A stretch of DNA of 35,741 bases from Ruminococcus flavefaciens (GTDB taxonomy: Bacteria > Bacillota > Clostridia > Oscillospirales > Ruminococcaceae). How positions within the stretch are numbered: the first letter of the stretch is position 1; the number at the start of each line of letters is the position of its first letter. Position numbers and translations under genes: made by a program. The DNA lies in contig CACYSQ010000020.1 of NCBI GenBank assembly GCA_902777125.1, forward strand, positions 1-35,741, given 5' to 3'. Positions 658 to 28,647 of this stretch are shown here, piece by piece. The notes beneath the pieces were generated by a model, which saw only the letters and a list, made by a program, of their open reading frames with translations, searched no databases and was not told the DNA's origin.

Positions 658-1905
658 TCACCGCCCCCCGACCATATCAAATACAGCAGGAGAGTAGCCT
701 GATACCAGAGCTGCACCTGTTTCCGAACGGTTCACGGGAACAGCATCAAAGCGAGCGTTGACGTTCCAGAAAACGATATCGGGCAGTCTGTAGCCGTACC
801 TTGCGTAGAGCCTTCTCATCTCACGGAACATAGGCTCATCGTTGCCGCCGACAATGCAGCAGTCAAACTGCATATCGGAGATTATGTAGAGCTTTGAGGG
901 CATATCAGCTGCGGGAACGACATTCTTCATAGCTGTACAGAGTATCAGCATGAATACAGCCTCGAGGTTTGTATTTGCGACCTCGTTGAATGTTCGGCAG
1001 TAGTGCACCTTTTCAACGATATTGCGTCCCTTTATCTCGACGAGACGGGGAGTTTCGGAGAATGTGATGAAGTGGTTGGCGAATGCGCCGGTGTTGTGCT
1101 CAGCGAAGTATATGCCCAGCGACAGAGCCGCGTCTATGGGACGTATACTGCCGCAGTCGCAGGTCATGGAGCCGGAGCCGTCGATGACAGCAAGCGCATT
1201 TTCACGCTTTGACGCTGTCAGGTCGGGCATGGACTTCCATGCCGCGTCCAGCGAAACAGTTTCAGCAGCAGAGACATTGCCCATAGCCGCACGGACTATG
1301 TCGTAGGGGAAGAGTCTGTCAGCGTGGAGCTTTGCCTCGCCGTTGTGGTGTACCTTGTTCAGAAAATCGGAGTAACGCTCGCCGTCGTTGCGGACGAACG
1401 CTTCCCTGTACTTGAACATAGCGCACGAGGGCTGTGCTTCGTATCTGAACGTGTAGTCGCGCTCGCGGAGACGGTTCTCTAGAATGTCGGTGTAGCGGCG
1501 GAGTGCGGACAGTGTCTTTCTGTAGGTGCGCTCGGTCATGCCGAGGGCGGCAGCTATACGTCTGCCCATGCTGCGTGTCTCAGCAGAGGAGGTATTCGCG
1601 GAAGGCAGCCACTTTGTTTCGCTCTCGCTCTCATTCCAGAGCTGCTGAACGTCGCCGCACTTCATGACCTCATAGCCCTGCTCGCAGAACTCCTGATATT
1701 TAGCCATAAGCTCATTTATGGTCGGCTCAACGAGTGCTGAAAACATATCCTCTTTGTTTTTGAAGTGTTTGTAAAGCGCACCAGCTGTTATGCCAGAATT
1801 TTCCGCTATCCTACGCATTGAAGCTCCCTCGAAGCCGTATTCAAGGAACTCAGAAGTTGCAGCCTTGATTATTCTTTTATGAGCTTCGGTTTTGTCTCTC
1901 GGCAT
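658..1905 (-). CDS. TetR DNA-binding head fused to C-terminal part of a DUF2828 (vWA-like) protein; frameshifted near the end
   Basis: Residues 1-60 (MPRDKTEAHKRII, GASMRRIAENSGITAGALYKHF) are a TetR/AcrR helix-turn-helix. From about residue 95 (KWLPSANTSS) the sequence follows DUF2828, a vWA-like family, including the metal-site motif DGSGSM and TNLEAVF. The ligand-binding domain expected of TetR and the first half expected of DUF2828 are both absent, so this reads as a fusion by deletion. The start was chosen for AAAGGAGG eight bases upstream (1905, not 1977). At a run of six C (664-669; G on the coding strand) the frame breaks. Dropping one base restores a DUF2828-like tail (ECSPESVMDRILSSERYSAI) ending at 588, just before the terminator. 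Function of DUF2828 is unknown to me. The hybrid may be a pseudogene. Confidence 0.75.
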   Translation of the reverse strand: MPRDKTEAHKRIIKAATSEFLEYGFEGASMRRIAENSGITAGALYKHFKNKEDMFSALVEPTINELMAKYQEFCEQGYEVMKCGDVQQLWNESESETKWLPSANTSSAETRSMGRRIAAALGMTERTYRKTLSALRRYTDILENRLRERDYTFRYEAQPSCAMFKYREAFVRNDGERYSDFLNKVHHNGEAKLHADRLFPYDIVRAAMGNVSAAETVSLDAAWKSMPDLTASKRENALAVIDGSGSMTCDCGSIRPIDAALSLGIYFAEHNTGAFANHFITFSETPRLVEIKGRNIVEKVHYCRTFNEVANTNLEAVFMLILCTAMKNVVPAADMPSKLYIISDMQFDCCIVGGNDEPMFREMRRLYARYGYRLPDIVFWNVNARFDAVPVNRSETGAALVSGYSPAVFDMVGGR

Positions 1906-1928
1906 TTCTGCGCCTCCTTTTAGTGAAC

Positions 1929-1944
1929 ACTGTTTGCCTACAGT
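1929..1944. promoter_or_regulatory. Inverted repeat, candidate TetR operator
   Basis: ACTGT-TTGCCT-ACAGT lies between the -10 of the promoter at 1949-1977 and the ribosome binding site. The position suits autorepression by a TetR-type protein. The assignment is inference. Confidence 0.4.
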
Positions 1945-1948
1945 TAGT

Positions 1949-1977
1949 ATTATGTAACATATCATACCGTTTGTCAA
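1949..1977 (-). promoter_or_regulatory. Promoter of the TetR-DUF2828 gene
   Basis: On the minus strand, -35 TTGACA (1972-1977) and -10 CATAAT (1949-1954) are separated by 17 bases, about 45 bases upstream of the start codon. A TTAG-N6-GTAA half-match (1944-1957) overlaps the -10. Confidence 0.7.
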
Positions 1978-17315: not shown

Positions 17316-18683
17316 TCAGTTTTTTGCACTTTCCAGTGCATTCCGGGCAGCCTCCATGATGCCCTTTGAGCTGTAGGTCGCACCTGAGCAAGCGTCAACG
17401 TCCGCACTCATGCTCTGCTGTATCTGCGGTATGACCTTCTGCATCGCATCGCTGAAATACTCGGCATCATCGTCATCTGCATAAGCGGAAAATGCCGTGA
17501 TATAGTCATTTTCAATGGTTATGGAAACGTGTACCTTTCCGGTATAGCCCTCGCCGGTGCCCTCGAATGTACCGTTTTTAAAGCGGTAGACCGGCTGCGG
17601 CTCGGTGGGAGCCTCCGTGACCGGCTCGGTCTTGGCGGGCTCGGTCTGAACTGCCGGAGCTTCCGTGGTGGTTTCGGCAGGGGAGGTACCGGTCTCGGAC
17701 ACCTCGGAGGTATAAGCAGATGTCGTTTCCGTTGCAGCCTCCGATGAAGCCTCAGCGGACGTTTCTGCCGTCGTGACCGTAGACTTTTCCGAAACAGCCG
17801 CGGAGGTCGTTGTGACAGCGGAGGCTGATGTGACAGTTGCAGCCGGAGCGTCAAATGTGAATACAGCCGGAGCCTCCTTTGAAGCCTTTATGGTCTCCTT
17901 GTCATTGGTATTGCGCGAAATGAAGCCTATCAAGCACAGCGGTATTATCATTCCGCAGGCACAGACTATATTGGGTGCCGTTTTTGCGTTGGGTCTCCTT
18001 TTTGTGACGAACAGCTTCCGCAGACGCATTGAAGCATAGCCGATGAATACCGCGCTGTAGACAAGGACGTTTAGGAAATAGCCGTCCCTGCCGTTCTGAG
18101 CCTTCGGCACGAAAAGCACCATGACATGAATGAATATCAGCGCATAGAAAAGGTAAGCCGTGCGCTGTATCTTTTTCCACAGTTTAGCGTTCATTTTTCT
18201 GCGTACCGTCTTGAACGACATGACCGTGAGCGGCAGCATTATCAGCACCATTACAAGACAAACGATGCTCGTTATGATGAAGTCCCTCAGTGCATCGCCC
18301 GAGCCCGTCCTGTCGCGGATAATATCGGAGATGTACTGTATGCCGTAGGTCACAACGTGGGAGAGCGTGAGTACAGCCGCGGTTATCGAGAGCTCGCCGC
18401 GAATTGGCATGAGCTTTTTTATCGCAAAGGTGCCGTTCGGGAGAGCACCTGCCCACATGACTACCGCCCAGAAAGCTGCACCGAGTGAGCCTCTTGTGAA
18501 TACAGCAAGGAGGTAGTCCCGGACAAATCCGCTCGATATCGTAACATCAGCCTGCTTTACGGCAACGGACACAACGGTCAGCACTGCGGCGGCAGCATAG
18601 AACGCTCCGGGGTGGCTTTTGAGCTGCTTATCCAGAAAAAAAGCGATAAACAGCGCAATTGCAAGTGAAATTATAAACAGCAT
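17316..18683 (-). CDS. Ferric-reductase-like membrane protein with C-terminal FMN-binding domain
   Basis: Residues 1-255 hold about seven membrane helices arranged like ferric reductase/YedZ (MsrQ) proteins, with candidate haem histidines in LTLSHVVTYGIQ and YALIFIHVMVLF. Residues about 265-365 are an extracellular Thr/Ala/Glu/Pro-rich linker. Residues about 368-455 are an FMN_bind domain ending in DACSGATYSS, where Thr436 fits the residue to which ApbE-type transferases attach FMN covalently. The design moves electrons across the membrane to a surface flavin, probably to reduce ferric iron or another acceptor. It is the last gene of the run DUF2325-DUF3793-flavodoxin-surface protein, downstream of feoB. 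GAGG precedes the ATG. A 9-bp hairpin (18707-18736) lies in the gap before it. Confidence 0.82.
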   Translation of the reverse strand: MLFIISLAIALFIAFFLDKQLKSHPGAFYAAAAVLTVVSVAVKQADVTISSGFVRDYLLAVFTRGSLGAAFWAVVMWAGALPNGTFAIKKLMPIRGELSITAAVLTLSHVVTYGIQYISDIIRDRTGSGDALRDFIITSIVCLVMVLIMLPLTVMSFKTVRRKMNAKLWKKIQRTAYLFYALIFIHVMVLFVPKAQNGRDGYFLNVLVYSAVFIGYASMRLRKLFVTKRRPNAKTAPNIVCACGMIIPLCLIGFISRNTNDKETIKASKEAPAVFTFDAPAATVTSASAVTTTSAAVSEKSTVTTAETSAEASSEAATETTSAYTSEVSETGTSPAETTTEAPAVQTEPAKTEPVTEAPTEPQPVYRFKNGTFEGTGEGYTGKVHVSITIENDYITAFSAYADDDDAEYFSDAMQKVIPQIQQSMSADVDACSGATYSSKGIMEAARNALESAKN

Positions 18684-18706
18684 ATTTTCAACCTCAATTC
18701 AGCACA

Positions 18707-18736
18707 TTACCCCTGGAGCATGAGCCGCAGGGGTAA
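18707..18736. repeat. Intergenic hairpin
   Basis: TTACCCCTG / CAGGGGTAA with a 12-base loop, between the wall-anchored protein gene and the FMN protein gene. There is no T-run, so a partial terminator or mRNA-stability stem is more likely than a full terminator. Confidence 0.5.
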
Positions 18737-18765
18737 CATGAGTTGTATTGTGTCAGGAAAGGGGA

Positions 18766-20226
18766 TCAGTCTTTCTTTCTTCTTACTGCGAATGCAGTCG
18801 CACCGGCAAGTGCAAGCATAGCAGCCGGTATTGCAGCACCGGCATCACCGGTCTTGGGACTGTCGGAGCTGTTGCCGTTGTTTGCTGAACCTGTACCTGA
18901 TGTTGTAGTAGTTGTTGTGGTTGTAGTAGTTGTTGTTGTCGTAACAGGCTTTATCTCAAATGTGTAAGGGTTGGTATAGCCGGTAGCGGTAACAGTGATG
19001 CTGTAATTTCCGCTGCCGTCAAAGACCTTTCCGCTGCGTGATTCAGCATCAAAGTCGATAGTGCCGTCCTCGCCGAACGCCTTGACAGCGCCCTTTCCGG
19101 AAGCACTGAATGAGGTACCGTTCACTTCAAAGGAAGCGATATTTTTGATGAAGTTTGCAGCGTCAGCATCGGTGAAGCCGTCAGCCTTTACGAGCTTGCC
19201 GTTATCGTATTTTACCGGGATATCCTCAGTTGTAAGCTTGAAGCTGCCCGAAAGGGGAGCGTACTTTCCGCTTGTGTCTGAGACCGTAACGGTGTAGCTG
19301 CCGGGCTTTGCGCTGGTGTAGCTTATCTCTGTTTCGGTGACAGTGAAGCCCTCGCCGACCTCTATTTTCTTGCTGTAGTCATCGGGGAAGCCTGTGAGCG
19401 AAAGGGAAGTCTTTCCGGTGCCGGCAGCGGCGTCCTCAGCCTTGACCTCGCCTGCGAACTTCACAGGGAGATACTGCTCTCCGACATTAACTGTCGTATA
19501 GCCGTCAAGCGTGATGAATGTGACGGAGGTGACAGTCTTGCCCATAGAGCTTGCGTAATCCTCGAATTTAAGGTCGTTTCCGTGTACTTCCTTGGTCGTG
19601 ATACCGGCAGACCATGAGACCTGTCCGGCACGCCAGATGTTTTCGAGGTGACGGAGAGCGTACTTGTCACCCTCCTTGGTGTTGACGATAATGCCGTAGA
19701 GGTCAGTCTCCTCGGGATAGCCCTTGATGTTGAGCTGATAGTCGCCGTATCTTGTTGAAGTGGAAACTGTTGCGGAGCCGTCCTTGGTCTGCTCGCCGTT
19801 TGTGTCTATGAGCTTTGAGACCGTCAGGGAATCGCCCGAAACGGTAACCTCCTTGTATGCGGCAGGCTTCTCATCGAGCTTCTTGAAGTCGTACTTTGCA
19901 AGCTTGTCGGCATCGGCAGCATTCACCTCAACAGGGAATGTAACGCCGAGGATAGTGCCGTTTCCGTCATTGTAGGTGCCTGCAACGAGTCCGCCCTCCT
20001 GATTCATCTGCCACTTAGCCTTAGAGTTTTCGTCGCGGGCTCTTGTAGCGGAAGATACCGCATCGACCTCGTATGCGCTGTCGATCTCGGCAGCGTAGAA
20101 ATCCGCGTAGGGGATATTCATCGTACCGTAGATCTTTTCAGCGGAGGCAGCGTTTACCGGGAAAGCTGCCGCTGTGAGTACCGCCATGCAGGCTGCCGCA
20201 CTGACAAGTGAAAATGTTTTTTTCAT
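18766..20226 (-). CDS. Wall-anchored surface protein of unknown function
   Basis: 486 residues: a signal peptide (MKKTFSLVSAAACMAVLTAA, cleaved near VNA-AS), a body beginning IYGTMNIPYADFYAAE, several Ig- or bacterial-surface-like beta segments, a run of 16 Thr, and a C-terminal sortase-type signal with SPKTGD, a hydrophobic helix and RRKKD. I recognise the N-terminal IYGTMNIPYADFY type from Firmicutes surface proteins but not its function. EVDAVSSAT near residues 53-61 faintly resembles the DxxSGAT flavin-attachment motif, which may be coincidence. Position between flavodoxin and the FMN-binding reductase suggests a part in surface electron transfer or iron/haem capture. GGAGG precedes the ATG; 11 bases separate it from the flavodoxin stop. 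Confidence 0.7.
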   Translation of the reverse strand: MKKTFSLVSAAACMAVLTAAAFPVNAASAEKIYGTMNIPYADFYAAEIDSAYEVDAVSSATRARDENSKAKWQMNQEGGLVAGTYNDGNGTILGVTFPVEVNAADADKLAKYDFKKLDEKPAAYKEVTVSGDSLTVSKLIDTNGEQTKDGSATVSTSTRYGDYQLNIKGYPEETDLYGIIVNTKEGDKYALRHLENIWRAGQVSWSAGITTKEVHGNDLKFEDYASSMGKTVTSVTFITLDGYTTVNVGEQYLPVKFAGEVKAEDAAAGTGKTSLSLTGFPDDYSKKIEVGEGFTVTETEISYTSAKPGSYTVTVSDTSGKYAPLSGSFKLTTEDIPVKYDNGKLVKADGFTDADAANFIKNIASFEVNGTSFSASGKGAVKAFGEDGTIDFDAESRSGKVFDGSGNYSITVTATGYTNPYTFEIKPVTTTTTTTTTTTTTTSGTGSANNGNSSDSPKTGDAGAAIPAAMLALAGATAFAVRRKKD

Positions 20227-20237
20227 ACTGTTCCTCC

Positions 20238-20642
20238 TTATGCAAGCTGTGCTGCAAGCTCTTTCAGCTTTGCAAGGTCGTCGTCCGAGGGTGCCTCGTT
20301 TACGATGAAGCCCTCGTCAGCGATGAGTTCGGCACCGGCAGCCTTTACGCGGTCGCACCAGTTTCTCATCCATTCGCCGTCACCCCAGCCGTATGAGCCG
20401 AAGAGAAGCACTTTCTTGCCGCTGAGTGAACCCTCGATGCCTGTGAAGAAGGGCTCGAATTCGTCCTCCTCAAGCACCTCTGCGCCCATTGCAGGGCAGC
20501 CGAATGCGAATGCCTCATAGTCTGCGGCATTTCCGCTGAAATCGGATACCGCAAAAAACTCTGCGTTTGCACCCTCGGCAGCCGCCTTAGCCATAGCCTC
20601 AGTGTTGCCTGTGCCGCTCCAGTAAATTACTGCTGTTTTCAT
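20238..20642 (-). CDS. Flavodoxin
   Basis: 134 residues, the size of a short-chain flavodoxin. The FMN phosphate loop is SGTGNTEAMA (residues 9-18), and FGCPAMGAE and LFGSYGWGDGEWM supply the other two flavin loops. It is a cytoplasmic one-electron carrier that replaces ferredoxin when iron is scarce, which suits its place behind the Feo genes. It overlaps the end of the DUF3793 gene by four bases (ATGA type) and so is translationally coupled. The electron donor cannot be told from sequence. Confidence 0.92.
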   Translation of the reverse strand: MKTAVIYWSGTGNTEAMAKAAAEGANAEFFAVSDFSGNAADYEAFAFGCPAMGAEVLEEDEFEPFFTGIEGSLSGKKVLLFGSYGWGDGEWMRNWCDRVKAAGAELIADEGFIVNEAPSDDDLAKLKELAAQLA

Positions 20643-21217
20643 ATATTTTCCTCCTTGGAAACAGCCTGAAACAAGTTCAGACCTTTTTTTAATCTATCGA
20701 ACAGGATCACCCTGCACCGATCATATTCATCAAATGTTCGCTGTGCCTTTTCGGCGTTTTCGTAGACCTTCCAGTAGCCGCAAAGCAGACAGTTCTTGCC
20801 GCTGTTGCTGATAAATCCTCTTATGTCTGCGATGGGATAACCGAGAAATGCTCCTATCTCATGCGGAAAACTCCCGCAGCTGATACGGCTCGAAAGCTTA
20901 CCGAGCATTTCCTCCTTATCCTTGTCAGCGGAGTAGCCGTATTCCGCAAGGAACGCCTTTACGTCGGGCATTTTCAGCCATGCGCTGAGCATTTTCTCAT
21001 TGTAAATGTAGACAAGCGTCCTTTCGCGACACCTGCAAAGCTGTCTCGCACGGAAGCCCTCCGCAGAAAGCATTTCCGTGAATTCATGCAGGTATTCCGC
21101 TAAGGTCTCCTCATTCCGGGCAATGGATATGAGGTTCGCGCATTTTACTCCGAGCAGAGTCGGAGCTGAGTGGAATGCGAGCTCATTGTCTATCTCGAGG
21201 CGTTCAGGTTCGGACAT
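20639..21217 (-). CDS. DUF3793 family protein
   Basis: 192 residues matching DUF3793 signatures: HSAPTLLGVKCANLISI near the N-terminus and SFPHEIGAFLGYPIADIRGFI with LCGYWKVY in the second half. Conserved Cys and His residues (CRCRER, CLLCGYWKVY) could bind metal or haem, but this is inference. The family is common next to flavodoxin, DUF2325 and feoB in Clostridia, suggesting a role in iron metabolism. GGGAGG precedes the start, which lies 14 bases inside the end of the DUF2325 gene. Confidence 0.85.
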   Translation of the reverse strand: MSEPERLEIDNELAFHSAPTLLGVKCANLISIARNEETLAEYLHEFTEMLSAEGFRARQLCRCRERTLVYIYNEKMLSAWLKMPDVKAFLAEYGYSADKDKEEMLGKLSSRISCGSFPHEIGAFLGYPIADIRGFISNSGKNCLLCGYWKVYENAEKAQRTFDEYDRCRVILFDRLKKGLNLFQAVSKEENI

Positions 21218-21503
21218 TTCTGCCTCCCTTGTAGCCGGAAAGGAGCTGCTTCAGTGCGCTGACACTGGAGCTGTGGACGTGCTCGACCGGTACGCCTCTT
21301 TTTTCGGAGCTCTTTTTCACTGCACCGAGCATTTTATGTGAGCAAGTACCCGTGAAAACGACCATAAGATCGGGAGTACCCAGCTTGCTGTCGAAGTCCG
21401 CGGGCATCTGAGTGAATACCTTTGACTTGTGATTGAACGATTTGCAGATATCCTGATAGCGTGTAGCCATGCGGTCATTTCCGCCGACGATAACTATACT
21501 CAT
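21204..21503 (-). CDS. DUF2325 family protein
   Basis: 99 residues with the family's GG(N)DR start (MSIVIVGGNDRMATRYQDIC) and FTGTCSHKMLGAVKK, where CSH is the conserved Cys-His motif. The fold is thought to be flavodoxin-like or Toprim-like; function unknown. It leads the four-gene run to the surface protein and probably to the FMN reductase. A TTAG-N6-CTAA dyad (21519-21532) sits seven bases upstream of its AGGAGG, so iron-dependent control is likely. Confidence 0.85.
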   Translation of the reverse strand: MSIVIVGGNDRMATRYQDICKSFNHKSKVFTQMPADFDSKLGTPDLMVVFTGTCSHKMLGAVKKSSEKRGVPVEHVHSSSVSALKQLLSGYKGGRNVRT

Positions 21504-21518
21504 AATTCCTCCTTTTTA

Positions 21519-21532
21519 TTAGCGCATACTAA
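21519..21532. promoter_or_regulatory. TTAG-N6-CTAA dyad before DUF2325
   Basis: TTAGCGCATACTAA is an exact TTAG-N6-CTAA. It lies between the hairpin at 21548-21572 and the ribosome binding site of the DUF2325 gene. Similar dyads lie before feoA, before feoB and before the AraC gene. Confidence 0.55.
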
Positions 21533-21547
21533 CAATATGATTTTTAT

Positions 21548-21572
21548 ATGGGGCGATGCTTTATCGCCCCAT
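21548..21572. terminator. Hairpin between feoB cluster and DUF2325
   Basis: A 10-bp stem ATGGGGCGAT / ATCGCCCCAT with a five-base loop lies six bases after the Cys-rich peptide gene. The following minus-strand sequence is ATATAAAAATC, so there is no T-run and part of the feo transcript may read through. Confidence 0.5.
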
Positions 21573-21577
21573 TGAAG

Positions 21578-21724
21578 TTATTTAGTATGGCATTTACCGT
21601 GCATAGCGCAGTTCTGGCAGCCGTGGGAGCAGCCGCCCTTGCCTGACCTTTTGTCGCGTATCATCGTGTAGATAACAGTACCGACTATCAGTAAAAGTAT
21701 CAGTAATACTATCACAGTACCCAT
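21578..21724 (-). CDS. FeoB-associated Cys-rich membrane protein
   Basis: A 48-residue protein: one N-terminal membrane helix (VIVLLILLLIVGTVIY), a basic stretch IRDKRSGKGG, and a Cys-rich tail CSHGCQNCAMHGKC with four cysteines and two histidines. This is the known small partner found after feoB (FeoB_associated family), proposed to bind iron at the membrane. It starts 14 bases after the feoB stop with GGGAGG before the ATG. Confidence 0.9.
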   Translation of the reverse strand: MGTVIVLLILLLIVGTVIYTMIRDKRSGKGGCSHGCQNCAMHGKCHTK

Positions 21725-21738
21725 AAATACCTCCCGGC

Positions 21739-24222
21739 TTACGCCTTGACCTTTGATTTTGTCACATTTACGTTCTTATTGAGCTTTGTAGCCTCGCTGT
21801 ACTTCTTGATGAACAGCATATAGATCATGAATGCGAATATTGCGACAGCAAAGAGGAGACCGATGATGTTGACACTTCCTGTGAAGAGCTTGCCGAACTG
21901 GTAGATCATAAGTGCAACTGCATATGCAAATCCGCACTGATAACCGATAGCGAACCATGTCCACTTGGGACTGTTCATCTCACGCTTGATAGCACCGATC
22001 GCTGCAAAGCAGGGAGCACAGAGAAGATTGAACGCGAGGAAGGAATAGCCTGCGAGCTTTGTGAGTCCCTCGAAGTCGAGAACGCCGAATACGCCAACGA
22101 CTTCTTCCTTTGCAACGAGACCCATGACAGTAGCAACAGCAGCGGCAGCCTCATCGAAGCCGAGAGGTGCAAACAGCCACTTGATGCCGTTTCCGAAGTG
22201 ACCGAGAACAGAATCCTCGAGCTCAAGGTCAGCGTACCAGCCGAAGGAACCGTCAGACCAGCCGAAGGTCGAACCAGCCCAGATAACGATAGAAGAAAGA
22301 AGGATAATTGTACCAGCCTTCTTGATGAAGGACCAGCCGCGCTCCCACATTGAACGGAGAACATTGCTTACTGTGGGCATATGGTATGCGGGGAGCTCCA
22401 TTACGAACGGGGCAGGGTCTCCTGCAAACATCTTTGTCTTTTTGAGCATGATGCCTGATACAATGATAGAAGCCATACCGAGGAAGTAAGCGCTGGGTCC
22501 TACCCACCATGCACCGCCGAAAAGTGCAACTGCGATCATTGATATGATAGGAAGCTTTGCACCGCAGGGGATAAAGGTCGTTGTCATGATCGTCATACGT
22601 CTGTCACGCTCGTTCTCGATAGTACGGCTTGCCATGATACCGGGAACGCCGCAGCCTGTACCGATGAGTATCGGAATGAAGGACTTTCCTGAGAGACCGA
22701 AGCGGCGGAAGATCCTGTCCATGATGAACGCAACTCTTGCCATGTAGCCGCAGGCTTCAAGGAAAGCAAGGAAGATGAAAAGCACGAGCATCTGCGGAAC
22801 AAATCCGAGAACCGCACCAACACCTCCGATAACACCGTCAATGATGAGGCTCTTGAGCCACTCTGCACAGCCTATCTTGTCGAGGCCCTCCTCAGCGTAG
22901 CCGGGGATACTGTTCACATAGCCCTTGTAGTCAGCCATGTCGGGAGCTGTGAACTCGCCCTCCTCATCGAGAGCTTCACCGAGAGCGGCGTCAATATCGT
23001 AGACAGCCTCGGGATTGAGGATAGTTTCATCGTCCTCGGCGTAAACTGCCTTCTTGTAGAATTCGTCCTTGTAGAAGCCGTACTGCTCCTCGAAGTCATC
23101 GAACTCGCCGGACTCAAAGGCATCTCTGATGTCCTCTGCACCGTGAATGTCGTCGTCCTCGCAGGCAGCGTTGATAACTGCTGCGACCTCGTCTGTGAAT
23201 ACGAATTTATCAGCCCACTCGTCCTTGTCCTCATTGTAGTCCTTATTGCCGGAGATCGAAACGATGAAACCGTCACCGAAGAGGTTGTCGTTTACCCAGT
23301 CGGTCATTTTTGTACCGATCGTTGAGATGGAAACGTAGTAAACGATGACCATGATGAGTGCGAATATCGGCAGACCGAGGAAACGGTTCGTTACCACGCG
23401 GTCGATCTTGTCAGAGGTGCTGAGTTTTCCGGCACTCTTTTTCTTGTAGCAGGACTTGATAACGTCCGCTATGTAGATGTAACGCTCATTTGTGATGATA
23501 GACTCAGCGTCGTCGTCGAGCTCCTTTTCGGCAGCGGCGATGTCCGCTTCGATGTGAGCCTTTGTCGTACCGGAGATGTTGAGCTTCTCCATTACCTTGT
23601 CGTCACGCTCGAAGACCTTGAGTGCGTACCAGCGCTGCTGTTCCTCGGGCATATCGTGAAGAACAGCCTCCTCGATGTGGGCAATGGCGTGTTCAACGGG
23701 TCCGGAGAATGTGTGCTGCGGGATAGTCTTGCTGTTCTTTGCAGCGTTTATCGCAGCCTCGGCAGCCTCCTGAACACCCGTACCCTTGAGGGCGGATATC
23801 TCGACTACCATGCAGCCAAGCTGCTTTGAAAGCTCGGCAATGTTTATCTTGTCGCCGTTTTTCTTGATGATGTCGATCATGTTGACCGCAACGACTACCG
23901 GAATGCCAAGCTCTGTGAGCTGAGTTGTGAGGTAGAGGTTACGCTCGAGGTTCGTACCGTCGATGATGTTCAGGATAGCGTCCGGACGCTCACCGATGAG
24001 GTAGTTTCTCGCAACGACTTCTTCGAGCGTGTAGGGGGAAAGCGAGTAGATACCCGGCAGGTCAGTGATGATGACGTCACTGTGCTTTTTCAGCTTGCCT
24101 TCCTTTTTTTCAACTGTAACGCCCGGCCAGTTTCCGACAAACTGATTGGAACCGGTCAGCGCATTGAACAGCGTTGTTTTGCCGCAGTTCGGGTTTCCCG
24201 CAAGGGCAATGCGTATATCCAT
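21739..24222 (-). CDS. feoB: Ferrous iron transporter FeoB with a large acidic extracytoplasmic insertion
   Basis: 827 residues. The cytosolic GTPase shows G1 GNPNCGKTT (9-17), G3 DLPG (54-57) and G4 NMID (114-117). The membrane part has the Gate repeats GTGCGVPGIMASRT with Cys524 and FIPCGAKLPI with Cys553. Between the first membrane helix (about 285-305) and the next (about 456) lies an insertion of about 130 residues (318-450) very rich in Asp and Glu (EDDDIHGAEDIRDAF, FDDFEEQYGFYKDEF). The usual loop there is only a few tens of residues. It should face outside, and it could collect Fe2+. The gene follows two feoA genes and is followed by the Cys-rich partner. GGAAG precedes the ATG. Confidence 0.95.
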   Translation of the reverse strand: MDIRIALAGNPNCGKTTLFNALTGSNQFVGNWPGVTVEKKEGKLKKHSDVIITDLPGIYSLSPYTLEEVVARNYLIGERPDAILNIIDGTNLERNLYLTTQLTELGIPVVVAVNMIDIIKKNGDKINIAELSKQLGCMVVEISALKGTGVQEAAEAAINAAKNSKTIPQHTFSGPVEHAIAHIEEAVLHDMPEEQQRWYALKVFERDDKVMEKLNISGTTKAHIEADIAAAEKELDDDAESIITNERYIYIADVIKSCYKKKSAGKLSTSDKIDRVVTNRFLGLPIFALIMVIVYYVSISTIGTKMTDWVNDNLFGDGFIVSISGNKDYNEDKDEWADKFVFTDEVAAVINAACEDDDIHGAEDIRDAFESGEFDDFEEQYGFYKDEFYKKAVYAEDDETILNPEAVYDIDAALGEALDEEGEFTAPDMADYKGYVNSIPGYAEEGLDKIGCAEWLKSLIIDGVIGGVGAVLGFVPQMLVLFIFLAFLEACGYMARVAFIMDRIFRRFGLSGKSFIPILIGTGCGVPGIMASRTIENERDRRMTIMTTTFIPCGAKLPIISMIAVALFGGAWWVGPSAYFLGMASIIVSGIMLKKTKMFAGDPAPFVMELPAYHMPTVSNVLRSMWERGWSFIKKAGTIILLSSIVIWAGSTFGWSDGSFGWYADLELEDSVLGHFGNGIKWLFAPLGFDEAAAAVATVMGLVAKEEVVGVFGVLDFEGLTKLAGYSFLAFNLLCAPCFAAIGAIKREMNSPKWTWFAIGYQCGFAYAVALMIYQFGKLFTGSVNIIGLLFAVAIFAFMIYMLFIKKYSEATKLNKNVNVTKSKVKA

Positions 24223-24249
24223 TATTGATTCTTCCTTCCTGATATGGAG

Positions 24250-24263
24250 ATAGCAAAAGCTAA
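24250..24263. promoter_or_regulatory. TTAG-N6-CTAA-like dyad between feoA and feoB
   Basis: ATAGCAAAAGCTAA matches the dyad at seven of eight fixed bases and lies 28 bases upstream of feoB. It may mark a second, weaker iron-controlled site inside the operon. Confidence 0.35.
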
Positions 24264-24293
24264 CATATTCTCATTAAAAAAGAGGAACGTGCC

Positions 24294-24518
24294 TCATTCG
24301 CTGACTTCGATCATTTCCGCATCAGCCTTACGCAGTGAAAGCTCATAGCCGCGTACTGTGATCTCGAGAGGATCGCCGAGCGGTGCGACCTTGCGGATAG
24401 TGACCTGCGTACCCTTAGTGATGCCCATGTCCATGATGCGGCGCCTTACAGCACCCTCGCCGTGTATCTTGAGTATCTTCACGGTCTTGCCGATAGCCGT
24501 ATCTCTCAATGTTTTCAT
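24294..24518 (-). CDS. feoA: FeoA domain protein (second copy)
   Basis: 74 residues forming one SH3-like FeoA domain: LRDTAIGKTVKILKIHGEGAVRRRIMDMGITKGTQVTI, then the final hairpin VRGYELSLRKADAEMI. FeoA is a cytosolic accessory of FeoB. The ATG at 24518 was preferred to the GTG at 24527 because GAGGTGA lies five bases before it. It follows the first feoA after about ten bases. Confidence 0.93.
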   Translation of the reverse strand: MKTLRDTAIGKTVKILKIHGEGAVRRRIMDMGITKGTQVTIRKVAPLGDPLEITVRGYELSLRKADAEMIEVSE

Positions 24519-24528
24519 CTTATTCACC

Positions 24529-24741
24529 TCATACCATTATTTTTCTTGCAAGCTCTTCGCTTATCGCAACTCTTGATTCCTTGACCTTCACGATGACGTT
24601 TTCGCCGAGCCTTGAAACAAGACTGACGTTACCGCCGACATGAAAGCCGAGATCCTCCAGATGCTTTTTGACCTCAGGATTTCCGCCTATCTTGCGAATG
24701 ACAAGCTCCTTTTCCTGTTCAGCCATACTTAGCGGCATCAT
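24529..24741 (-). CDS. feoA: FeoA domain protein (first copy)
   Basis: 70 residues, an SH3-like FeoA domain (ELVIRKIGGNPEVKKHLEDLGFHVG, VIVKVKESRVAISEELARKI). It is diverged from the second copy, so the two probably act as different subunits with FeoB rather than being a recent duplication. It is first in the feo operon. GGAAG lies about eight bases before the start; the start could also be the second or third ATG. Confidence 0.9.
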   Translation of the reverse strand: MMPLSMAEQEKELVIRKIGGNPEVKKHLEDLGFHVGGNVSLVSRLGENVIVKVKESRVAISEELARKIMV

Positions 24742-24770
24742 TACAACACTTCCGTTTCTGAAAAAATATA

Positions 24771-24790
24771 ATGTTAGCGCTTTATAACAT
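24771..24790. promoter_or_regulatory. Operator-like palindrome downstream of the feo promoter
   Basis: ATGTTA-GCGCTTTA-TAACAT is a perfect 6-8-6 dyad covering the expected transcription start. It also contains TTAG-N6-ATAA (24774-24787), one mismatch from TTAG-N6-CTAA. The position suits repression of feo by an iron-loaded regulator. Confidence 0.5.
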
Positions 24791-24794
24791 TGCT

Positions 24795-24823
24795 ATAATA
24801 GCACTGTCTGAAGTGTTTGTCAA
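24795..24823 (-). promoter_or_regulatory. Promoter of the feoAAB operon
   Basis: On the minus strand, TTGACA (24818-24823), a 17-base spacer and TATTAT (24795-24800), 53 bases before the first feoA start. Confidence 0.8.
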
Positions 24824-24850
24824 TCGGATTTATATAAGTTTGTATATGAT

Positions 24851-24884
24851 AACAAAATATTAGTTGAAACTAACAAATATTTTG
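24851..24884. promoter_or_regulatory. Long AT-rich palindrome containing TTAG-N6-CTAA
   Basis: An exact TTAGTTGAAACTAA (24860-24873) lies inside a larger imperfect palindrome, ACAAAATAT on the left and ATATTTTGT on the right. It is about 30 bases upstream of the feo -35, where a second regulator dimer or a looping site could sit. Confidence 0.5.
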
Positions 24885-24913
24885 TATTTTTCTGCATTAC
24901 TGCTGAAAACACA

Positions 24914-25035
24914 GAAAAGCACCATAGCTGCCACGGTGTCCGTTAGCGTTTTTTCAAAACTGCCGGAGAATCTTTCCTCCCGATAAGTTCATGTAAAACT
25001 GCTGTATGAACGCCGCGGCTGCATAGGTGCTTTTC
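24914..25035. ncRNA. Structured RNA candidate between the P-type ATPase gene and feoA
   Basis: Perfect 10-bp arms GAAAAGCACC (24914-24923) and GGTGCTTTTC (25026-25035) close a 122-base element. Inside are an internal loop, a second stem GCCACGG/CCGCGGC (24930-24936 with 25013-25019, one G-U on the minus strand), a hairpin GTTCAT/ATGAAC (24987-24992 with 25006-25011) and a smaller CGGAG/CTCCCG stem. The strand is not decided. It follows the ATPase stop on the minus strand by 22 bases, so it could be a 3' UTR element or a metal-responsive leader upstream of feo. I could not match a known class. Confidence 0.45.
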
Positions 25036-25057
25036 ATCAGCGCTAATGCTGCGTATT

Positions 25058-27127
25058 CTATTTCAGCTCAGTCATGCTTTTCAGTCCGATAGCAAGAGTT
25101 GAGGCATTGTGCAGAAGTGCGGAGGAGGCAGGCGGCAGCACTCCGAGGACTCCAAGTCCGATAAGACCGCCGTTGAAGCCGATGATAGTACGGTAATTCC
25201 AGCTTATCCGCGACATCAGCGCATTACTCAGACGCTTCAGCTCGACAAGGGCGTACAGGTCGTTGGCTGATATGGTGATATCGGCTATTTCACGCGCAAT
25301 GGCAGCTCCCGTGCTAATGGCGATACCGGCATCAGCCTCGCTGAGTGCAGGCGAATCGTTCACGCCGTCGCCGATCATTATGACCTTCCGTCTTGCCTCA
25401 TGCTCGGCACGGATAAATGCAGCCTTGTCCTCCGGCAGAACCTCAGCGTGATATTCGTCCACGCCGATCTTTTCCGCAACAGCCTTTGCCGTGCGCTCGT
25501 TGTCGCCGGTCATCATGACTACACGCGATATCCCGCATTCGTGGAGCTTCCGCACAACATCGGCAGCCTCCTCACGGAGCGGATCCTCAATGCAGATCAC
25601 CGCTGCGACTTCATTTCCGATGGCAAGGTAAAGATGCGAGTATTCCTTCGGAAGATGCCTGAAAATGCGCTCGTCAGGCGGAGTGCATTTCTCGTCCTCG
25701 ATGATGAAATGGTGACTTCCGATGAGCACGCGCTCGCCCTCGACCGTGCTTGAGATACCGTGCGCCACAACGTACTCCACCTTTGAGTGGAACTCCTCAT
25801 GTATAAGTCCGCGCTTGGCAGCCTCGGCAACTACCGCGTTCGCAATGGAGTGAGGGTAGTGCTCCTCGAGACAGGCTGCGAGCCGCAGCATTTCGTCCTC
25901 GCTGCGTCCGCCGAAGGTTATCACCTCGGCAACTCTCGGACTGGAATGCGTGAGAGTTCCGGTCTTGTCAAAAACAATGGTATCAGCCTCAGCGACCGCC
26001 TCCATGAAGCGTCCGCCCTTGACCGTGATGCCCGCTCTGCTGCAATCACGCATTGCCGAGAGTACCGATATCGGCATCGCAAGCTTGAGGGCACAGGAGA
26101 AGTCCACCATGAGTATGGACAGTGCTTTTGAGGCGTTCCGGGTGAGCAGCCATGTGAGCAGCGTTCCGCCAAGACTCCACGGGACGAGCCTGTCCGCAAG
26201 ATGCGAAGCCCTGTCCTCTGCGGCGGACTTCATCTTCTCGGATTCCTCTATCATCTTCACGATGCGGTCGTACCTGCCTCCGCCTGCTGTATTCTCGACG
26301 CAGACAGTACATTCACCGTCCTCCACGACAGTTCCGGCATATACATATGCACCTGCGGACTTGTGAACAGGCACGGATTCGCCTGTCATCGAAGCCTGAT
26401 TGACCATTGCGTCGCCGGAAACGACCTTGCCGTCGAGAGGTATCATAGAGCCTGTTCTGACGATTATCATATCGCCCCTGCGGACTTCGTTCACGGACAT
26501 CAGTATCTCCTGACCGTCAGCAGTTTTGGTCCACACCTGCTCAACGCCGAGGGACATGGTACGGGCAAGGTCGTCAACGGACTTCCTGTGCGTCCACTCA
26601 TCGAGAATGTCGCCCACATTCAGCAGGAACATAACTGAACCGGCTGTTCCGAAGTCGCCGCGGAGCATTGATACTCCTATGGCGGTAGCGTCCAGGACGG
26701 CGACCTCCAGCTTGCCCTTCAGCAGACATTTCATTCCGCGAAATATGTACTTTGCCGCCTTGAATACTGAGATTATCCGGCGGAACGGCACCGGGAGAAT
26801 AAACCGGTTGACGACACGCTTCATCACAACTCCGGCAAGCCTGTTCTCGTACTGGCGGTTCAGCTCCCTGCCGGTATGCTCCGGAACAAGTGAGGCGTTC
26901 CGCTCATCGTCGAAGGAAAAGTGTGAGAGCTTCCGGACTATCTCCTCACGCGGACAGGTATACGCTATCACGATATCGCAGGTGCGGTCAAAAACCTGCA
27001 CCCTCGTTACTCCGACTGCCGCGGAAAGTGTATATTCTGCGATATCAGCCTGTTTCATTGTCATGCGGCTCATGCAGAACCGCACACGCATTCTACCATT
27101 TGATTCGTGTAATATCTTGCATTTCAT
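25058..27127 (-). CDS. P1B-type metal-transporting ATPase with atypical FSC membrane motif
   Basis: 689 residues. An HMA-like N-terminal region lacks CxxC (residues 1-70). TGES is at 248-251, the phosphorylated Asp is D387 in DKTGTLT, HYPHSIANA is the P1B HP motif, and the hinge is MIGDGVNDSPAL. The ion-binding CPC motif of Cu+/Zn2+ pumps is here FSC (343-345, DFSCALKLAMP), so the metal is unlikely to be the classical one. The position between DUF6110 and the feo operon and the nearby iron-type operators suggest iron or another divalent metal, probably exported. AGGAGG precedes the ATG. It is transcribed after the small DUF6110 gene. Confidence 0.88.
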   Translation of the reverse strand: MKCKILHESNGRMRVRFCMSRMTMKQADIAEYTLSAAVGVTRVQVFDRTCDIVIAYTCPREEIVRKLSHFSFDDERNASLVPEHTGRELNRQYENRLAGVVMKRVVNRFILPVPFRRIISVFKAAKYIFRGMKCLLKGKLEVAVLDATAIGVSMLRGDFGTAGSVMFLLNVGDILDEWTHRKSVDDLARTMSLGVEQVWTKTADGQEILMSVNEVRRGDMIIVRTGSMIPLDGKVVSGDAMVNQASMTGESVPVHKSAGAYVYAGTVVEDGECTVCVENTAGGGRYDRIVKMIEESEKMKSAAEDRASHLADRLVPWSLGGTLLTWLLTRNASKALSILMVDFSCALKLAMPISVLSAMRDCSRAGITVKGGRFMEAVAEADTIVFDKTGTLTHSSPRVAEVITFGGRSEDEMLRLAACLEEHYPHSIANAVVAEAAKRGLIHEEFHSKVEYVVAHGISSTVEGERVLIGSHHFIIEDEKCTPPDERIFRHLPKEYSHLYLAIGNEVAAVICIEDPLREEAADVVRKLHECGISRVVMMTGDNERTAKAVAEKIGVDEYHAEVLPEDKAAFIRAEHEARRKVIMIGDGVNDSPALSEADAGIAISTGAAIAREIADITISANDLYALVELKRLSNALMSRISWNYRTIIGFNGGLIGLGVLGVLPPASSALLHNASTLAIGLKSMTELK

Positions 27128-27145
27128 ATTGCGTCCTCCTATGAA

Positions 27146-27168
27146 AACAGACCGTCAAGCGGTCTGTT
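27146..27168 (-). promoter_or_regulatory. Hairpin between DUF6110 and the ATPase gene
   Basis: A 9-bp stem AACAGACCG / CGGTCTGTT with loop of five, followed by TTCATAGGAGG on the minus strand. It may attenuate read-through or protect the downstream mRNA; the T-run is short. Confidence 0.45.
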
Positions 27169-27173
27169 CTGGC

Positions 27174-27470
27174 TTAGTCTTCACTTGTATCCGCGATATC
27201 CTCGCACTCGTCAGCGATAAGAGCTTCCTCCTCCTTCAAGGCTCTCTGCTCGTTTATCTCCTTTGCATCTGCGAGAATGTCACCGCAGTTCTCGCGGACA
27301 GTCGTAACGGTCTGCATGACATCTGATTTCGCACGGAGTACAGCAGCAGTTGCGTGAGTGTAGCCCTTTTTCGCGTCCTTGCTGGAGAGCACTCTTATGC
27401 CGGCAGTTCCGAACAGAACGCCGCTTGCGAATACGCCGACCTTTTTCCACGGAATGTCTGTAAATTTCAT
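27174..27470 (-). CDS. DUF6110 family protein
   Basis: 98 residues: MKFTDIPWKKVGVFASGVLFGTAGIRVL forms a glycine-rich membrane-type helix. SSKDAKKGYTHATAAVLRAK follows, and the tail is acidic and helical (EEEALIADECEDIADTSED). This matches DUF6110, typically placed before heavy-metal P-type ATPases in Clostridia, and I infer that it assists or anchors the ATPase. GAGGTGAT precedes the ATG. A possible -10 TATAAT lies about 50 bases upstream, without a clear -35. Confidence 0.8.
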   Translation of the reverse strand: MKFTDIPWKKVGVFASGVLFGTAGIRVLSSKDAKKGYTHATAAVLRAKSDVMQTVTTVRENCGDILADAKEINEQRALKEEEALIADECEDIADTSED

Positions 27471-27574
27471 AATATCACCTCATTTAGCAATTGTGGAAGG
27501 TTTTCCATTGACTATATTATACGGCAAAACAGACACCCTTTCCGCTCCATAAGGCCGAAAGCTGATATACCGTG

Positions 27575-28393
27575 CTAATAACGCAGCAGAGCTTGTTCTG
27601 CACGTTTTTCGGACGCTGCACTTTTGTTATGCTCCATTCGGAAATGTTTCGGCGTAACGCCCATAACGCTGCTGAAAGCATTTGCGAACTTGCTCGCATT
27701 GCTGTAGCCGACCTCCTCCGCGATGTCGATTATCTTCATATCCGTCTGCATGAGAAGCTCCGCTGCCCGGAACATCTTCCGCCGTTTTATATATGAGTAG
27801 ATGCCGCAGCCGTATGTGCGCTTGAAATTGCTTTTGAGCGCAGTCACATTGACTTTGAATATCTCCGAAAGTTGAGAAATTGTGTAGTGCTCGGAAATAT
27901 TACTGCATAGGAAATCGGCTGTGCGTTTAGTCTTTTTATTGTTTTTCCGATCGGGAGCGTTCTCGCCGAGCAGCATGAACAGTTCGATAGCTTTAAGCCT
28001 CATAAGCGATGTCATACCCTTGTCCGCACCTGCAAGAATAGCCGTCAGCAGGTTATGTATACTGCCGTCCGCCTGATAGACGAGCCTTTCGTTCTGAATG
28101 ATGTCGCGCATGACCTTTGTTATGCCGAAAAGGTCGGTGATATCGGCGTTGTCAGGACCGGAGGCTATCATCATGAACAGACCGCGGAAGTCCTTTGAGC
28201 AGAAGGCCGCTGCCTCTGCACCGCGGCTGAATGCAAGTATAGTTTCATCAGTCAGGTAGCAGTAATGCTCACCGGTGCGGTACTCGCAGATACCGCTAAC
28301 ACAGCAGCATATCATAAGCTCGTCCCTGCCGGCAGGAACAGGTCTGTTGCCGCAGACGAGCCTTATATCGGGGAATAGCTGGTATTCTGTCAT
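27575..28393 (-). CDS. AraC-family transcriptional regulator
   Basis: 272 residues. The C-terminal 100 residues hold two helix-turn-helix motifs (YTISQLSEIFKVNVTALKSNFKRTYG and IIDIAEEVGYSNASKFANAFSSVMGVTPKHFR), as in AraC/XylS proteins. The N-terminal 150 residues are a divergent sensor domain with several Cys (ICCCVSGICEY), which might sense metal or redox. Its promoter overlaps and precedes iron-type dyads (28435-28454 and 28500-28511), so its own expression is probably iron controlled. Such AraC regulators with siderophore or iron roles exist in Firmicutes; the effector here is unknown. Confidence 0.85.
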   Translation of the reverse strand: MTEYQLFPDIRLVCGNRPVPAGRDELMICCCVSGICEYRTGEHYCYLTDETILAFSRGAEAAAFCSKDFRGLFMMIASGPDNADITDLFGITKVMRDIIQNERLVYQADGSIHNLLTAILAGADKGMTSLMRLKAIELFMLLGENAPDRKNNKKTKRTADFLCSNISEHYTISQLSEIFKVNVTALKSNFKRTYGCGIYSYIKRRKMFRAAELLMQTDMKIIDIAEEVGYSNASKFANAFSSVMGVTPKHFRMEHNKSAASEKRAEQALLRY

Positions 28394-28434
28394 GGTCTCA
28401 CCGCCTTATCAGAAGCTTCCGGTAATAAACACTA

Positions 28435-28454
28435 GGGTTAGCTGCAACTAACCC
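28435..28454. promoter_or_regulatory. Perfect palindrome with TTAG-N6-CTAA before the AraC gene
   Basis: GGGTTAG-CTGCAA-CTAACCC is a perfect 7-6-7 dyad in the 5' UTR of the AraC gene. It resembles DtxR/IdeR-type boxes (TTAGGTTAGsCTAACCTAA). It is the strongest of the set in this window. Confidence 0.6.
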
Positions 28455-28499
28455 GGTATCATAAGAAAAAGCAGTCCGTACTGCTTTGTGTTTGTATAT

Positions 28500-28511
28500 T
28501 CTAACCTAATA
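28500..28511. promoter_or_regulatory. Half-palindrome TATTAGGTTAGA at the AraC transcription start
   Basis: Read on the minus strand, TATTAGGTTAGA directly follows the -10 and matches the left half of the DtxR/IdeR box. It covers the expected start of transcription. Confidence 0.4.
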
Positions 28512-28512
28512 C

Positions 28513-28541
28513 ATTATATCACCGTCGATTTCAGGTGTCAA
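28513..28541 (-). promoter_or_regulatory. Promoter of the AraC gene
   Basis: On the minus strand, TTGACA (28536-28541), a 17-base spacer and TATAAT (28513-28518). The leader to the start codon is about 110 bases and holds the two dyads. The rest of 28542-28647 shows only AT-rich sequence with two further TTAG half sites. Confidence 0.8.
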
Positions 28542-28647
28542 TACAAAAACTTCAAAAAACTAACTTTTGGTAAATCGGCTCATTTATCATACTATAGGGA
28601 GATATTTTTGTTAGAAAACACAAACTTTTCTTAGGGAAGCAAATAAT

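What the first reader, a model, noticed from the sequence alone, without database searches (positions are those of the whole stretch)
21519..28511. Candidate iron regulon operator TTAG-N6-CTAA in the Feo region
Exact dyads lie at 21519-21532, 24860-24873 and 28438-28451, and one-mismatch versions at 24250-24263 and 24774-24787. All are intergenic, next to promoters or ribosome binding sites of iron-related genes. The best has the longer form GGGTTAG-N6-CTAACCC, like DtxR/IdeR boxes. About half an exact match would be expected by chance in the whole window; I did not scan exhaustively. No DtxR gene is visible here.
Basis: partly seen in the sequence, partly recalled or inferred. Interest (0 to 1): 0.7.

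Follow-up and report, generated by a model that had tools for sequence, protein, structure and literature searches.

The report
Iron-gene operator in Ruminococcus
A short mirror-image DNA sequence, repeated at the control regions of iron-uptake genes in this gut bacterium and dozens of relatives, is very probably where an iron-sensing repressor of the diphtheria-toxin-repressor family sits; the binding itself has not been tested.

Summary
The dyads are real. The fuller form is GTTAG-N6-CTAAC: 8 sites with at most one mismatch in the window, 0.64 expected. The genome has 25 such sites; 13 lie at three iron-linked loci. Of 81 feoB upstream regions (window plus 80 relatives), 70 carry an exact copy; spacing 6 gives 141 copies, each other spacing 0-20 at most 2. 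In 59 of 72 regions with a good promoter a copy starts about where transcription should start; control mean 6.

The likely reader is a 125-aa, SH3-less DtxR-family protein encoded elsewhere in the genome. Relatives stand divergent from feoA in 18 of 80 loci, with exact TTAG-N6-CTAA between in 17 of 18. The spacing equals the published single-dimer IdeR half site (PMC8464063), with different inner bases. The one Fur homologue found sits beside znuA. The window's AraC has relatives in 16 of 60 genus genomes, the motif is in 49 of 60.

Binding, iron response and repression are inferred.

The parts
21518..21533 (.). Operator copy just upstream of the Shine-Dalgarno of the DUF2325-DUF3793-flavodoxin gene run (ATTAG-N6-CTAAC, 1 mismatch; exact as TTAG-N6-CTAA)
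   Evidence: sequence
24249..24264 (.). Internal operator copy between feoA2 and feoB (1 mismatch); a copy with <=1 mismatch lies within 70 bp before feoB in 62 of 81 regions
24773..24788 (.). Proximal feoA operator, centre 17 bp downstream of the -10 centre (1 mismatch)
24859..24874 (.). Distal feoA operator, 69 bp upstream of the -10 centre (exact as TTAG-N6-CTAA)
28437..28452 (.). Operator in the araC leader, exact 16-mer inside GGGTTAG-N6-CTAACCC, +71 from the -10 centre
28490..28505 (.).
28610..28625 (.). Distal araC operator candidate (1 mismatch), -102 from the -10 centre
24795..24823 (-). feoA promoter TTGACA-17-TATTAT (predicted)
   Evidence: 11 of 12
28513..28541 (-). araC promoter TTGACA-17-TATAAT (predicted)
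   Evidence: 12 of 12
24529..24741 (-). feoA1
   Evidence: PF04023
24294..24527 (-). feoA2
   Evidence: PF04023
21739..24222 (-). feoB
   Evidence: PF02421, PF07664
21584..21724 (-). FeoB-associated Cys-rich membrane protein (47 residues read; the stop lies just beyond)
   Evidence: PF12669
21204..21503 (-). DUF2325 gene, first of the flavodoxin gene run
   Evidence: PF10087
20639..21217 (-). DUF3793 gene
   Evidence: PF12672
20238..20642 (-). flavodoxin
   Evidence: PF00258
18766..20226 (-). NPXTG-anchored surface protein with a Shr-like Hb-interacting domain
   Evidence: PF07550, NF033846
17316..18683 (-). Membrane protein with ferric-reductase-like and FMN-binding domains
   Evidence: PF01794, PF04205
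27575..28393 (-). AraC-family regulator, candidate target
   Evidence: PF12833
27174..27470 (-). DUF6110 gene, possibly co-transcribed with araC
   Evidence: PF19605
25058..27127 (-). Heavy-metal P-type ATPase
   Evidence: TIGR01525/TIGR01512 over cut-off

Best explanation
GTTAG-N6-CTAAC (often GTTAGC-N4-GCTAAC) is the operator of the iron regulon of this Ruminococcus and its relatives. One dimer of a 125-aa, two-domain DtxR-family protein (gene on contig C10, outside the window) binds each copy when loaded with Fe(II). The proximal copy lies across the expected start of transcription of feoAAB, of the second feoAB operon and of araC, so binding blocks transcription; further copies, often 34-35 bp away, and an internal copy before feoB add repression. 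When iron falls the protein lets go, and ferrous uptake (FeoAAB, FeoAB), flavodoxin with a surface ferric-reductase-like gene run, and the AraC/P-ATPase and ECF-transporter loci are switched on. Shown: the sites, their conservation and spacing, their fixed place relative to predicted promoters, and the dtxR neighbourhood in relatives. Inferred: which protein binds, that Fe(II) is the signal, that the effect is repression.
For: Exact copy upstream of feoB in 70 of 81 regions; 141 copies at spacing 6, at most 2 at any other spacing 0-20; first of all 5-mer inverted dyads, best count 4-6 in 10 shuffled sets. At <=1 mismatch 77 of 81 against 0-4 in 10 shuffled sets. 67-fold denser upstream of feoB than elsewhere in the same loci. 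204 exact sites against 28 for the reversed control over 60 genus genomes (summed). Operator centre at +17/+18 from the -10 centre at feoA1, araC and the second feoA; 59 of 72 regions have one at +16 to +22, against a mean of 6 and a maximum of 12 when promoter positions are dealt among loci 200 times. DtxR relative divergent from feoA in 18 of 80 loci, exact TTAG-N6-CTAA between in 17 of 18, one mismatch in the other. Cys-x-x-Glu-His in 19 of 19 feo-adjacent and 30 of 30 genus proteins, own included. Spacing equals the single-dimer IdeR half site (PMC8464063, passages). One Fur homologue found, beside znuA.
Against: No binding or expression data. The dtxR gene itself has no copy with <=1 mismatch near it in the own genome. 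Across the genus, 7 of 10 genomes without a strong match (E<1e-30) to the protein still have exact sites, against 42 of 50 with one: no clear association. These 10 are 66-90% complete, so missing sequence could explain it, but G005 and G027 (90%) have 5 and 3 sites. All four genomes at 90% or more with no exact site (G007, G026, G041, G042) have the protein. Position 9 is Asn in G000, where DtxR has Met and MntR has Asp; a D-C-E-H protein (PgMntR) responds to Mn (PMC4805248, passages). A review says SH3-less family members are not Fe-responsive in vivo (PMC7762939, passages). The apbE site is not conserved (3 of 30). Motif excess across the phylum is patchy.
Confidence: 0.8

Rival explanations
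1. Same operator and protein, but the sensed metal is manganese or several divalent metals (an MntR-like regulator).
For: The predicted fold is close to MntR, which also lacks SH3; the best NCBIfam hit is MntR though below cut-off, 88 against 153 bits; 5 of 19 feo-adjacent proteins have Asp at position 9; PgMntR with D-C-E-H responds to Mn (PMC4805248, passages).
Against: Cys replaces the MntR Glu99 ligand in 19 of 19 and 30 of 30; targets are Fe(II) transporters, flavodoxin and a ferric-reductase-like protein; 7 of 19 have the full DtxR set M-C-E-H.
Confidence: 0.12
2. Iron control of these genes, and this operator, belong to a Fur-family protein.
For: Fur is the usual iron regulator in most bacteria (PMC7762939, passage); one Fur-family gene exists.
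Against: That gene lies beside a ZnuA gene and reads as a Zur. A 7-1-7 Fur box is no commoner than in shuffled sequence upstream of feoB: 5 of 81 at <=3 mismatches against 1-11 in 10 shuffled sets; no GATAA/TTATC dyad is in the top 15.
Confidence: 0.03
3. The dyads are sites of the AraC-family regulators encoded at 27575-28393 and on contig C25, next to which several copies lie.
For: Copies lie at both araC loci; 7 of 16 related araC genes in the genus (own included) have a copy with <=1 mismatch within 300 bp upstream.
Against: The window AraC has a relative at E<=1e-30 in 16 of 60 genus genomes, against 49 of 60 with an exact site; feo promoters of relatives carry the motif while a relative of either AraC appears in only 6 of 80 loci; AraC proteins usually bind direct repeats (general knowledge).
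Confidence: 0.03
4. Chance dyads or short RNA hairpins in AT-rich intergenic DNA.
For: One-mismatch versions of the short form are no more common in the window than expected; the 28435-28454 copy scores as a stem.
Against: Spacing fixed at 6, conservation in 70 of 81, reversed control zero at exact match, fixed promoter distance.
Confidence: 0.01

Closest known systems
DtxR/IdeR iron repressors of Actinobacteria and their 19-bp box TTAGGTTAGSCTAACCTAA (PMC8464063, PMC10317159: passages read)
   Same: TTAG-N6-CTAA core and spacing of one dimer site; similar recognition helix; Cys-x-x-Glu-His metal ligands; operator at the expected start of transcription.
   Different: No SH3 domain; a single-dimer operator instead of two overlapping ones; a G/C added outside the core; the first base of the CCTAA repeat is C in 4% (one arm) and 9% (other arm) of 141 copies; Gln43 replaced by Ile/Val/Arg/Tyr.
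Single-dimer IdeR half site TTAGG-N4-CCTAA at the nuo promoter of Saccharopolyspora erythraea (PMC8464063, passages)
   Same: Identical core and spacing; one dimer per site.
   Different: There an exceptional site; here the standard operator, often in arrays 34-35, 25 or 19 bp apart.
MntR (Bacillus subtilis, E. coli)
   Same: Two-domain architecture and fold (TM about 0.8-0.9).
   Different: Metal ligand Glu99 is Cys here; NCBIfam MntR cut-offs not reached; targets are iron genes.
PgMntR of Porphyromonas gingivalis (PMC4805248, passages)
   Same: Mixed Fe/Mn ligand set with Cys.
   Different: Carries two FeoA domains and did not bind the promoter of the ferrous transporter FB1.

Membership tests
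DtxR superfamily | N-terminal winged helix PF01325 | tested here: met
   38.8 bits, cut-off 26
DtxR superfamily | Metal-binding/dimerisation domain PF02742 | tested here: met
   52.0 bits, cut-off 27; fold matches MntR/IdeR/DtxR
DtxR/IdeR (three-domain iron repressors) | C-terminal SH3-like domain | tested here: not met
   125 aa, nothing beyond the dimerisation helices
DtxR/IdeR (three-domain iron repressors) | Primary site Met10, Cys102, Glu105, His106 | tested here: inconclusive
   C100, E103, H104 in 19 of 19 and 30 of 30; position 9 Asn in G000 and 30 of 30 genus proteins; N 7, M 7, D 5 of the 19 feo-adjacent proteins
DtxR/IdeR (three-domain iron repressors) | 19-bp operator bound by two dimers | tested here: not met
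   Only the N6 dyad is conserved; no second overlapping repeat in the profile. Dimer number itself not testable here
DtxR/IdeR (three-domain iron repressors) | Fe(II)-dependent repression in vivo | not testable with these tools
   needs expression data
IdeR single-dimer half site | TTAGG-N4-CCTAA | tested here: inconclusive
   TTAG-N6-CTAA met; the inner G/C pair not conserved, 4% and 9% on the two arms
MntR | Asp8, Glu99, Glu102, His103 ligands; NCBIfam equivalog cut-off | tested here: not met
   Cys at the Glu99 position; 88 bits against 153
Fur regulon | Fur box upstream of feo | tested here: not met
   7-1-7 box at <=3 mismatches in 5 of 81, shuffled sets 1-11

The most novel reading that the evidence does not exclude
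A compact iron sensor: an SH3-less DtxR protein that does respond to Fe(II) in vivo and runs the whole iron regulon of rumen and gut Ruminococcus and relatives from arrays of single-dimer half sites, including an internal copy between feoA and feoB that acts as a roadblock to elongating polymerase. It would stand against the review statement that SH3-less members do not respond to Fe(II) in vivo.
Probability: 0.4. Interest if true: 0.6.

Novelty: new variant of a known kind. Interest (0 to 1): 0.5.

Why it matters
No paper on an iron operator or DtxR-type iron control in the Ruminococcus group was among the hits listed by nine searches of the open-access library (listings, and passages of six papers); subscription journals are mostly not held. 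This gives a concrete operator, a candidate protein and a target list that can be tested at once. It suggests that the half site reported as an exception in an actinobacterium is the normal operator of a large group of anaerobes, and offers a natural test of whether a DtxR protein without its third domain can sense iron.

Tried and rejected
Rejected or weakened: (a) AraC as reader. (b) Fur as reader. (c) apbE (C1:9937) as a regulon member: 3 of 30 genus apbE loci (own included) have a copy within 300 bp upstream, some of the 30 loci being cut short by contig ends so that the wrong stretch was read. The exact dyad at C1:11000 lies at the end of the apbE frame and is probably chance. (d) Sites at C2 (upstream of rnfC), C11 (near a ferredoxin) and the other scattered one-mismatch sites: the spacing-7 control has 8 sites, so these cannot be told from chance; not claimed. 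(e) Co-occurrence of protein and motif across the genus: sites in 42 of 50 genomes with a strong match and 7 of 10 without; not informative. (f) Phylum search: of the 8 same-order or same-class genomes drawn, 3 show a clear excess (G124 16 against 0, G285 20 against 0, G190 8 against 2) and 5 do not; elsewhere most do not, with exceptions such as G307 (18 against 2) and G122 (9 against 1). It was not summed.

Mistakes corrected: one search scanned unoriented loci and used a wrong count (9 of 25 on this contig); replace it (8 of 25).

Limits: the 80 relatives are not independent (for example L090 and L091). The profile was built from exact matches only, so its arms are fixed by construction. 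Shuffles in my scripts are first-order Markov draws, 10 per test.

Full report
What was checked. All five reported dyads are present as stated, with three further one-mismatch copies. Exact TTAG-N6-CTAA: 3 found, 0.52 expected, 1 of 100 shuffles reaches 3. Relaxed to one mismatch the short form is not enriched in the window (8 against 12.07), so on the short form alone the claim would be modest. The 16-base form GTTAG-N6-CTAAC at one mismatch is far above chance: 8 against 0.64, 0 of 100 shuffles.

Whole genome. The assembly (46 contigs, 97.5% complete) has 6 exact short dyads: 3 in this window, 2 on contig C25, 1 at the end of an apbE frame. At one mismatch the 16-mer has 25 sites: 8 on this contig (7 of them at 21518-28625), 4 on C25, 2 on C29 and 11 scattered. 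Binomial probabilities are 1.0e-9 for 8 of 25 on this contig and 4.9e-13 for 7 of 25 in the 7.1-kb stretch, the stretch being chosen after the fact. With spacing 7 instead of 6 there are 8 sites, none on these three contigs. The C29 pair lies upstream of a second feoA-feoB operon, and the C25 group beside an MptD-type ECF transporter gene, an AraC gene, CbiQ and ABC transporter genes; the iron role of the C25 locus is presumed.

What the window sites control. Reading leftwards: feoA1-feoA2-feoB with a FeoB-associated Cys-rich protein; then DUF2325-DUF3793-flavodoxin, an NPXTG-anchored Shr-like surface protein and a membrane protein with ferric-reductase-like and FMN-binding domains. Further right lie araC, DUF6110 and a heavy-metal P-type ATPase. 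Whether each run is one transcript is inferred from strand and spacing.

Conservation. FeoB was used to fetch 80 relatives, mostly Ruminococcus and other Clostridia/Oscillospiraceae assemblies. In the 1 kb upstream of feoB (less where contigs end) of window plus 80, the exact 16-mer is in 70 of 81 (141 copies). Other spacings from 0 to 20 give 0-2 copies each and the reversed pattern gives none. An unbiased count of all 5-mer inverted dyads ranks it first, and 10 shuffled sets peak at 4-6 sequences. At <=1 mismatch it is in 77 of 81, against 0-4 in 10 shuffled sets. In the 80 loci there are 141 copies in 77.5 kb upstream of feoB and 23 in 842 kb elsewhere, 14 of these within 250 bp of flavodoxin, DUF2325, DUF3793, ATPase or dtxR-like genes. 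In 60 genomes of the genus, 49 have an exact site; 204 sites against 28 for the reversed control (summed). Loci were returned for 30 of these sites, one per genome. The 45 neighbouring frames, chosen mechanically, include FeoA 7, enolase 4 (in three of the four loci a feoA frame stands on the other side), FeoB 2, thioredoxin-like 2Fe-2S 2, C_GCAxxG_C_C 2, FTR1 1, Trep_Strep 1, DUF2325 1 and a P-ATPase 1; others have no clear iron link, for example an amidase and a leucine carboxyl methyltransferase-like protein, and only 25 of 30 families were shown.

Geometry. At feoA1, araC and the second feoA, a predicted promoter of 11, 12 and 10 of 12 matches has an operator centred 17, 18 and 18 bp downstream of the -10 centre, that is starting about where transcription should start. 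At the ECF gene the offset is 55; no good promoter was found for the DUF2325 run. Among the 81 regions, 72 have a promoter of at least 10 of 12, picked without regard to the operator; 59 of 72 have an operator at +16 to +22. When promoter positions are dealt at random among the loci the mean is 6.0 and the maximum of 200 is 12. Of 120 offsets within 60 bp, 59 lie at +17 to +22, 32 at +51 to +56, 9 at -7, 9 at -54 to -50 and 11 elsewhere. Neighbouring copies are most often 34 or 35 bp apart, then 19 and 25. A copy with <=1 mismatch stands within 70 bp before feoB in 62 of 81 (26 exact), against at most 6 for other spacings. A -10 element with 5 or more matches at the expected distance is less common there (13 of 67) than at the exact upstream sites (44 of 110), which hints at a roadblock rather than a promoter.

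The genome has one DtxR-family gene over the cut-off in both domains (C10, 125 aa) and a degenerate one (C7). Relatives of the C10 protein lie near feo in 19 of 80 loci, 18 divergent from feoA and one downstream of feoB. Between the two genes (60 bp into dtxR and 40 bp into feoA allowed) the exact 16-mer is present in 15 of 18, and exact TTAG-N6-CTAA in 17 of 18. L097 and L106 have ATTAG-N6-CTAAT; L116 has one mismatch. Ligand positions C100, E103 and H104 are invariant in these 19 and in 30 genus proteins (own included); E12 and H78 hold in 18 of 19 and 30 of 30; position 9 is N, M or D. The alignment to DtxR puts C100-E103-H104 on Cys102-Glu105-His106 and Ile42 on Gln43 (ligand numbers from PMC4805248). 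The predicted model (pLDDT 92.7) matches MntR, IdeR and DtxR.

Protein and DNA agree on one detail. In IdeR each subunit reads CCTAA and Gln43 touches the first C (PMC8464063, passages). Here that base is C in 4% of 141 copies on one arm and 9% on the other, mostly G or A, and the Gln43 position is I, V, R or Y in the 19. The same paper reports that Q43A binds normally and that a C1-to-T1 change had no significant effect, so this is an agreement, not a mechanism. The paper also shows that one dimer binds TTAGG-N4-CCTAA, which has exactly the TTAG-N6-CTAA spacing.

Alternatives. The one Fur homologue found stands beside a ZnuA gene, and a Fur box is not enriched upstream of feoB (5 of 81 at <=3 mismatches, shuffled sets 1-11). 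The window AraC has relatives in 16 of 60 genus genomes; 7 of these 16 have a copy with <=1 mismatch upstream, which fits araC as a target. Manganese remains a live rival: the protein has the two-domain MntR shape, and PgMntR with a D-C-E-H site answers to Mn (PMC4805248, passages). A review states that SH3-less members do not respond to Fe(II) in vivo (PMC7762939, passages); if this protein does, that statement would need revising.

Against the reading. No copy with <=1 mismatch near the own dtxR gene. Exact sites occur in 7 of 10 genus genomes without a strong match to the protein (66-90% complete) and in 42 of 50 with one; the four genomes of 90% or more without exact sites have the protein. 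apbE is not a conserved target. Excess of the motif across the phylum is patchy.

Verdict.

Noticed in passing
window 24223-24293: A conserved operator copy sits between feoA2 and feoB in 62 of 81 regions; in the window it follows a CCTCTTTTTT stretch that may be a weak terminator or attenuator.
   Followed up: partly
L008 1477-1860 (G000:C7): A degenerate DtxR-like protein with none of the eight metal-site positions tested kept; relatives lie downstream of feoB in 7 of 80 loci, so it may be a Feo accessory or a metal-independent regulator.
   Followed up: partly
window 17316-21503: DUF2325-DUF3793-flavodoxin run followed by a Shr-like surface protein and a ferric-reductase/FMN-binding membrane protein: looks like a surface ferric reduction system.
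   Followed up: no
window 25058-27470 and L046 8527-11062: DUF6110 and heavy-metal P-type ATPase pair; in L046 it lies directly downstream of feoB. Substrate unknown, and an efflux pump under an iron repressor would be odd.
   Followed up: no
L121, L127, L132, L149: In four genus genomes an exact operator lies near the enolase gene; in three of them a feoA frame stands on the other side of the site.
   Followed up: no
window 658-1977: Frame combining a TetR N-terminal domain with DUF2828/DUF7788; a one-mismatch dyad lies at 1943-1958 near its start.
   Followed up: no
L036 15160-15481: Three one-mismatch copies upstream of a 633-aa GLUG-motif protein gene beside the ECF/AraC cluster.
   Followed up: no
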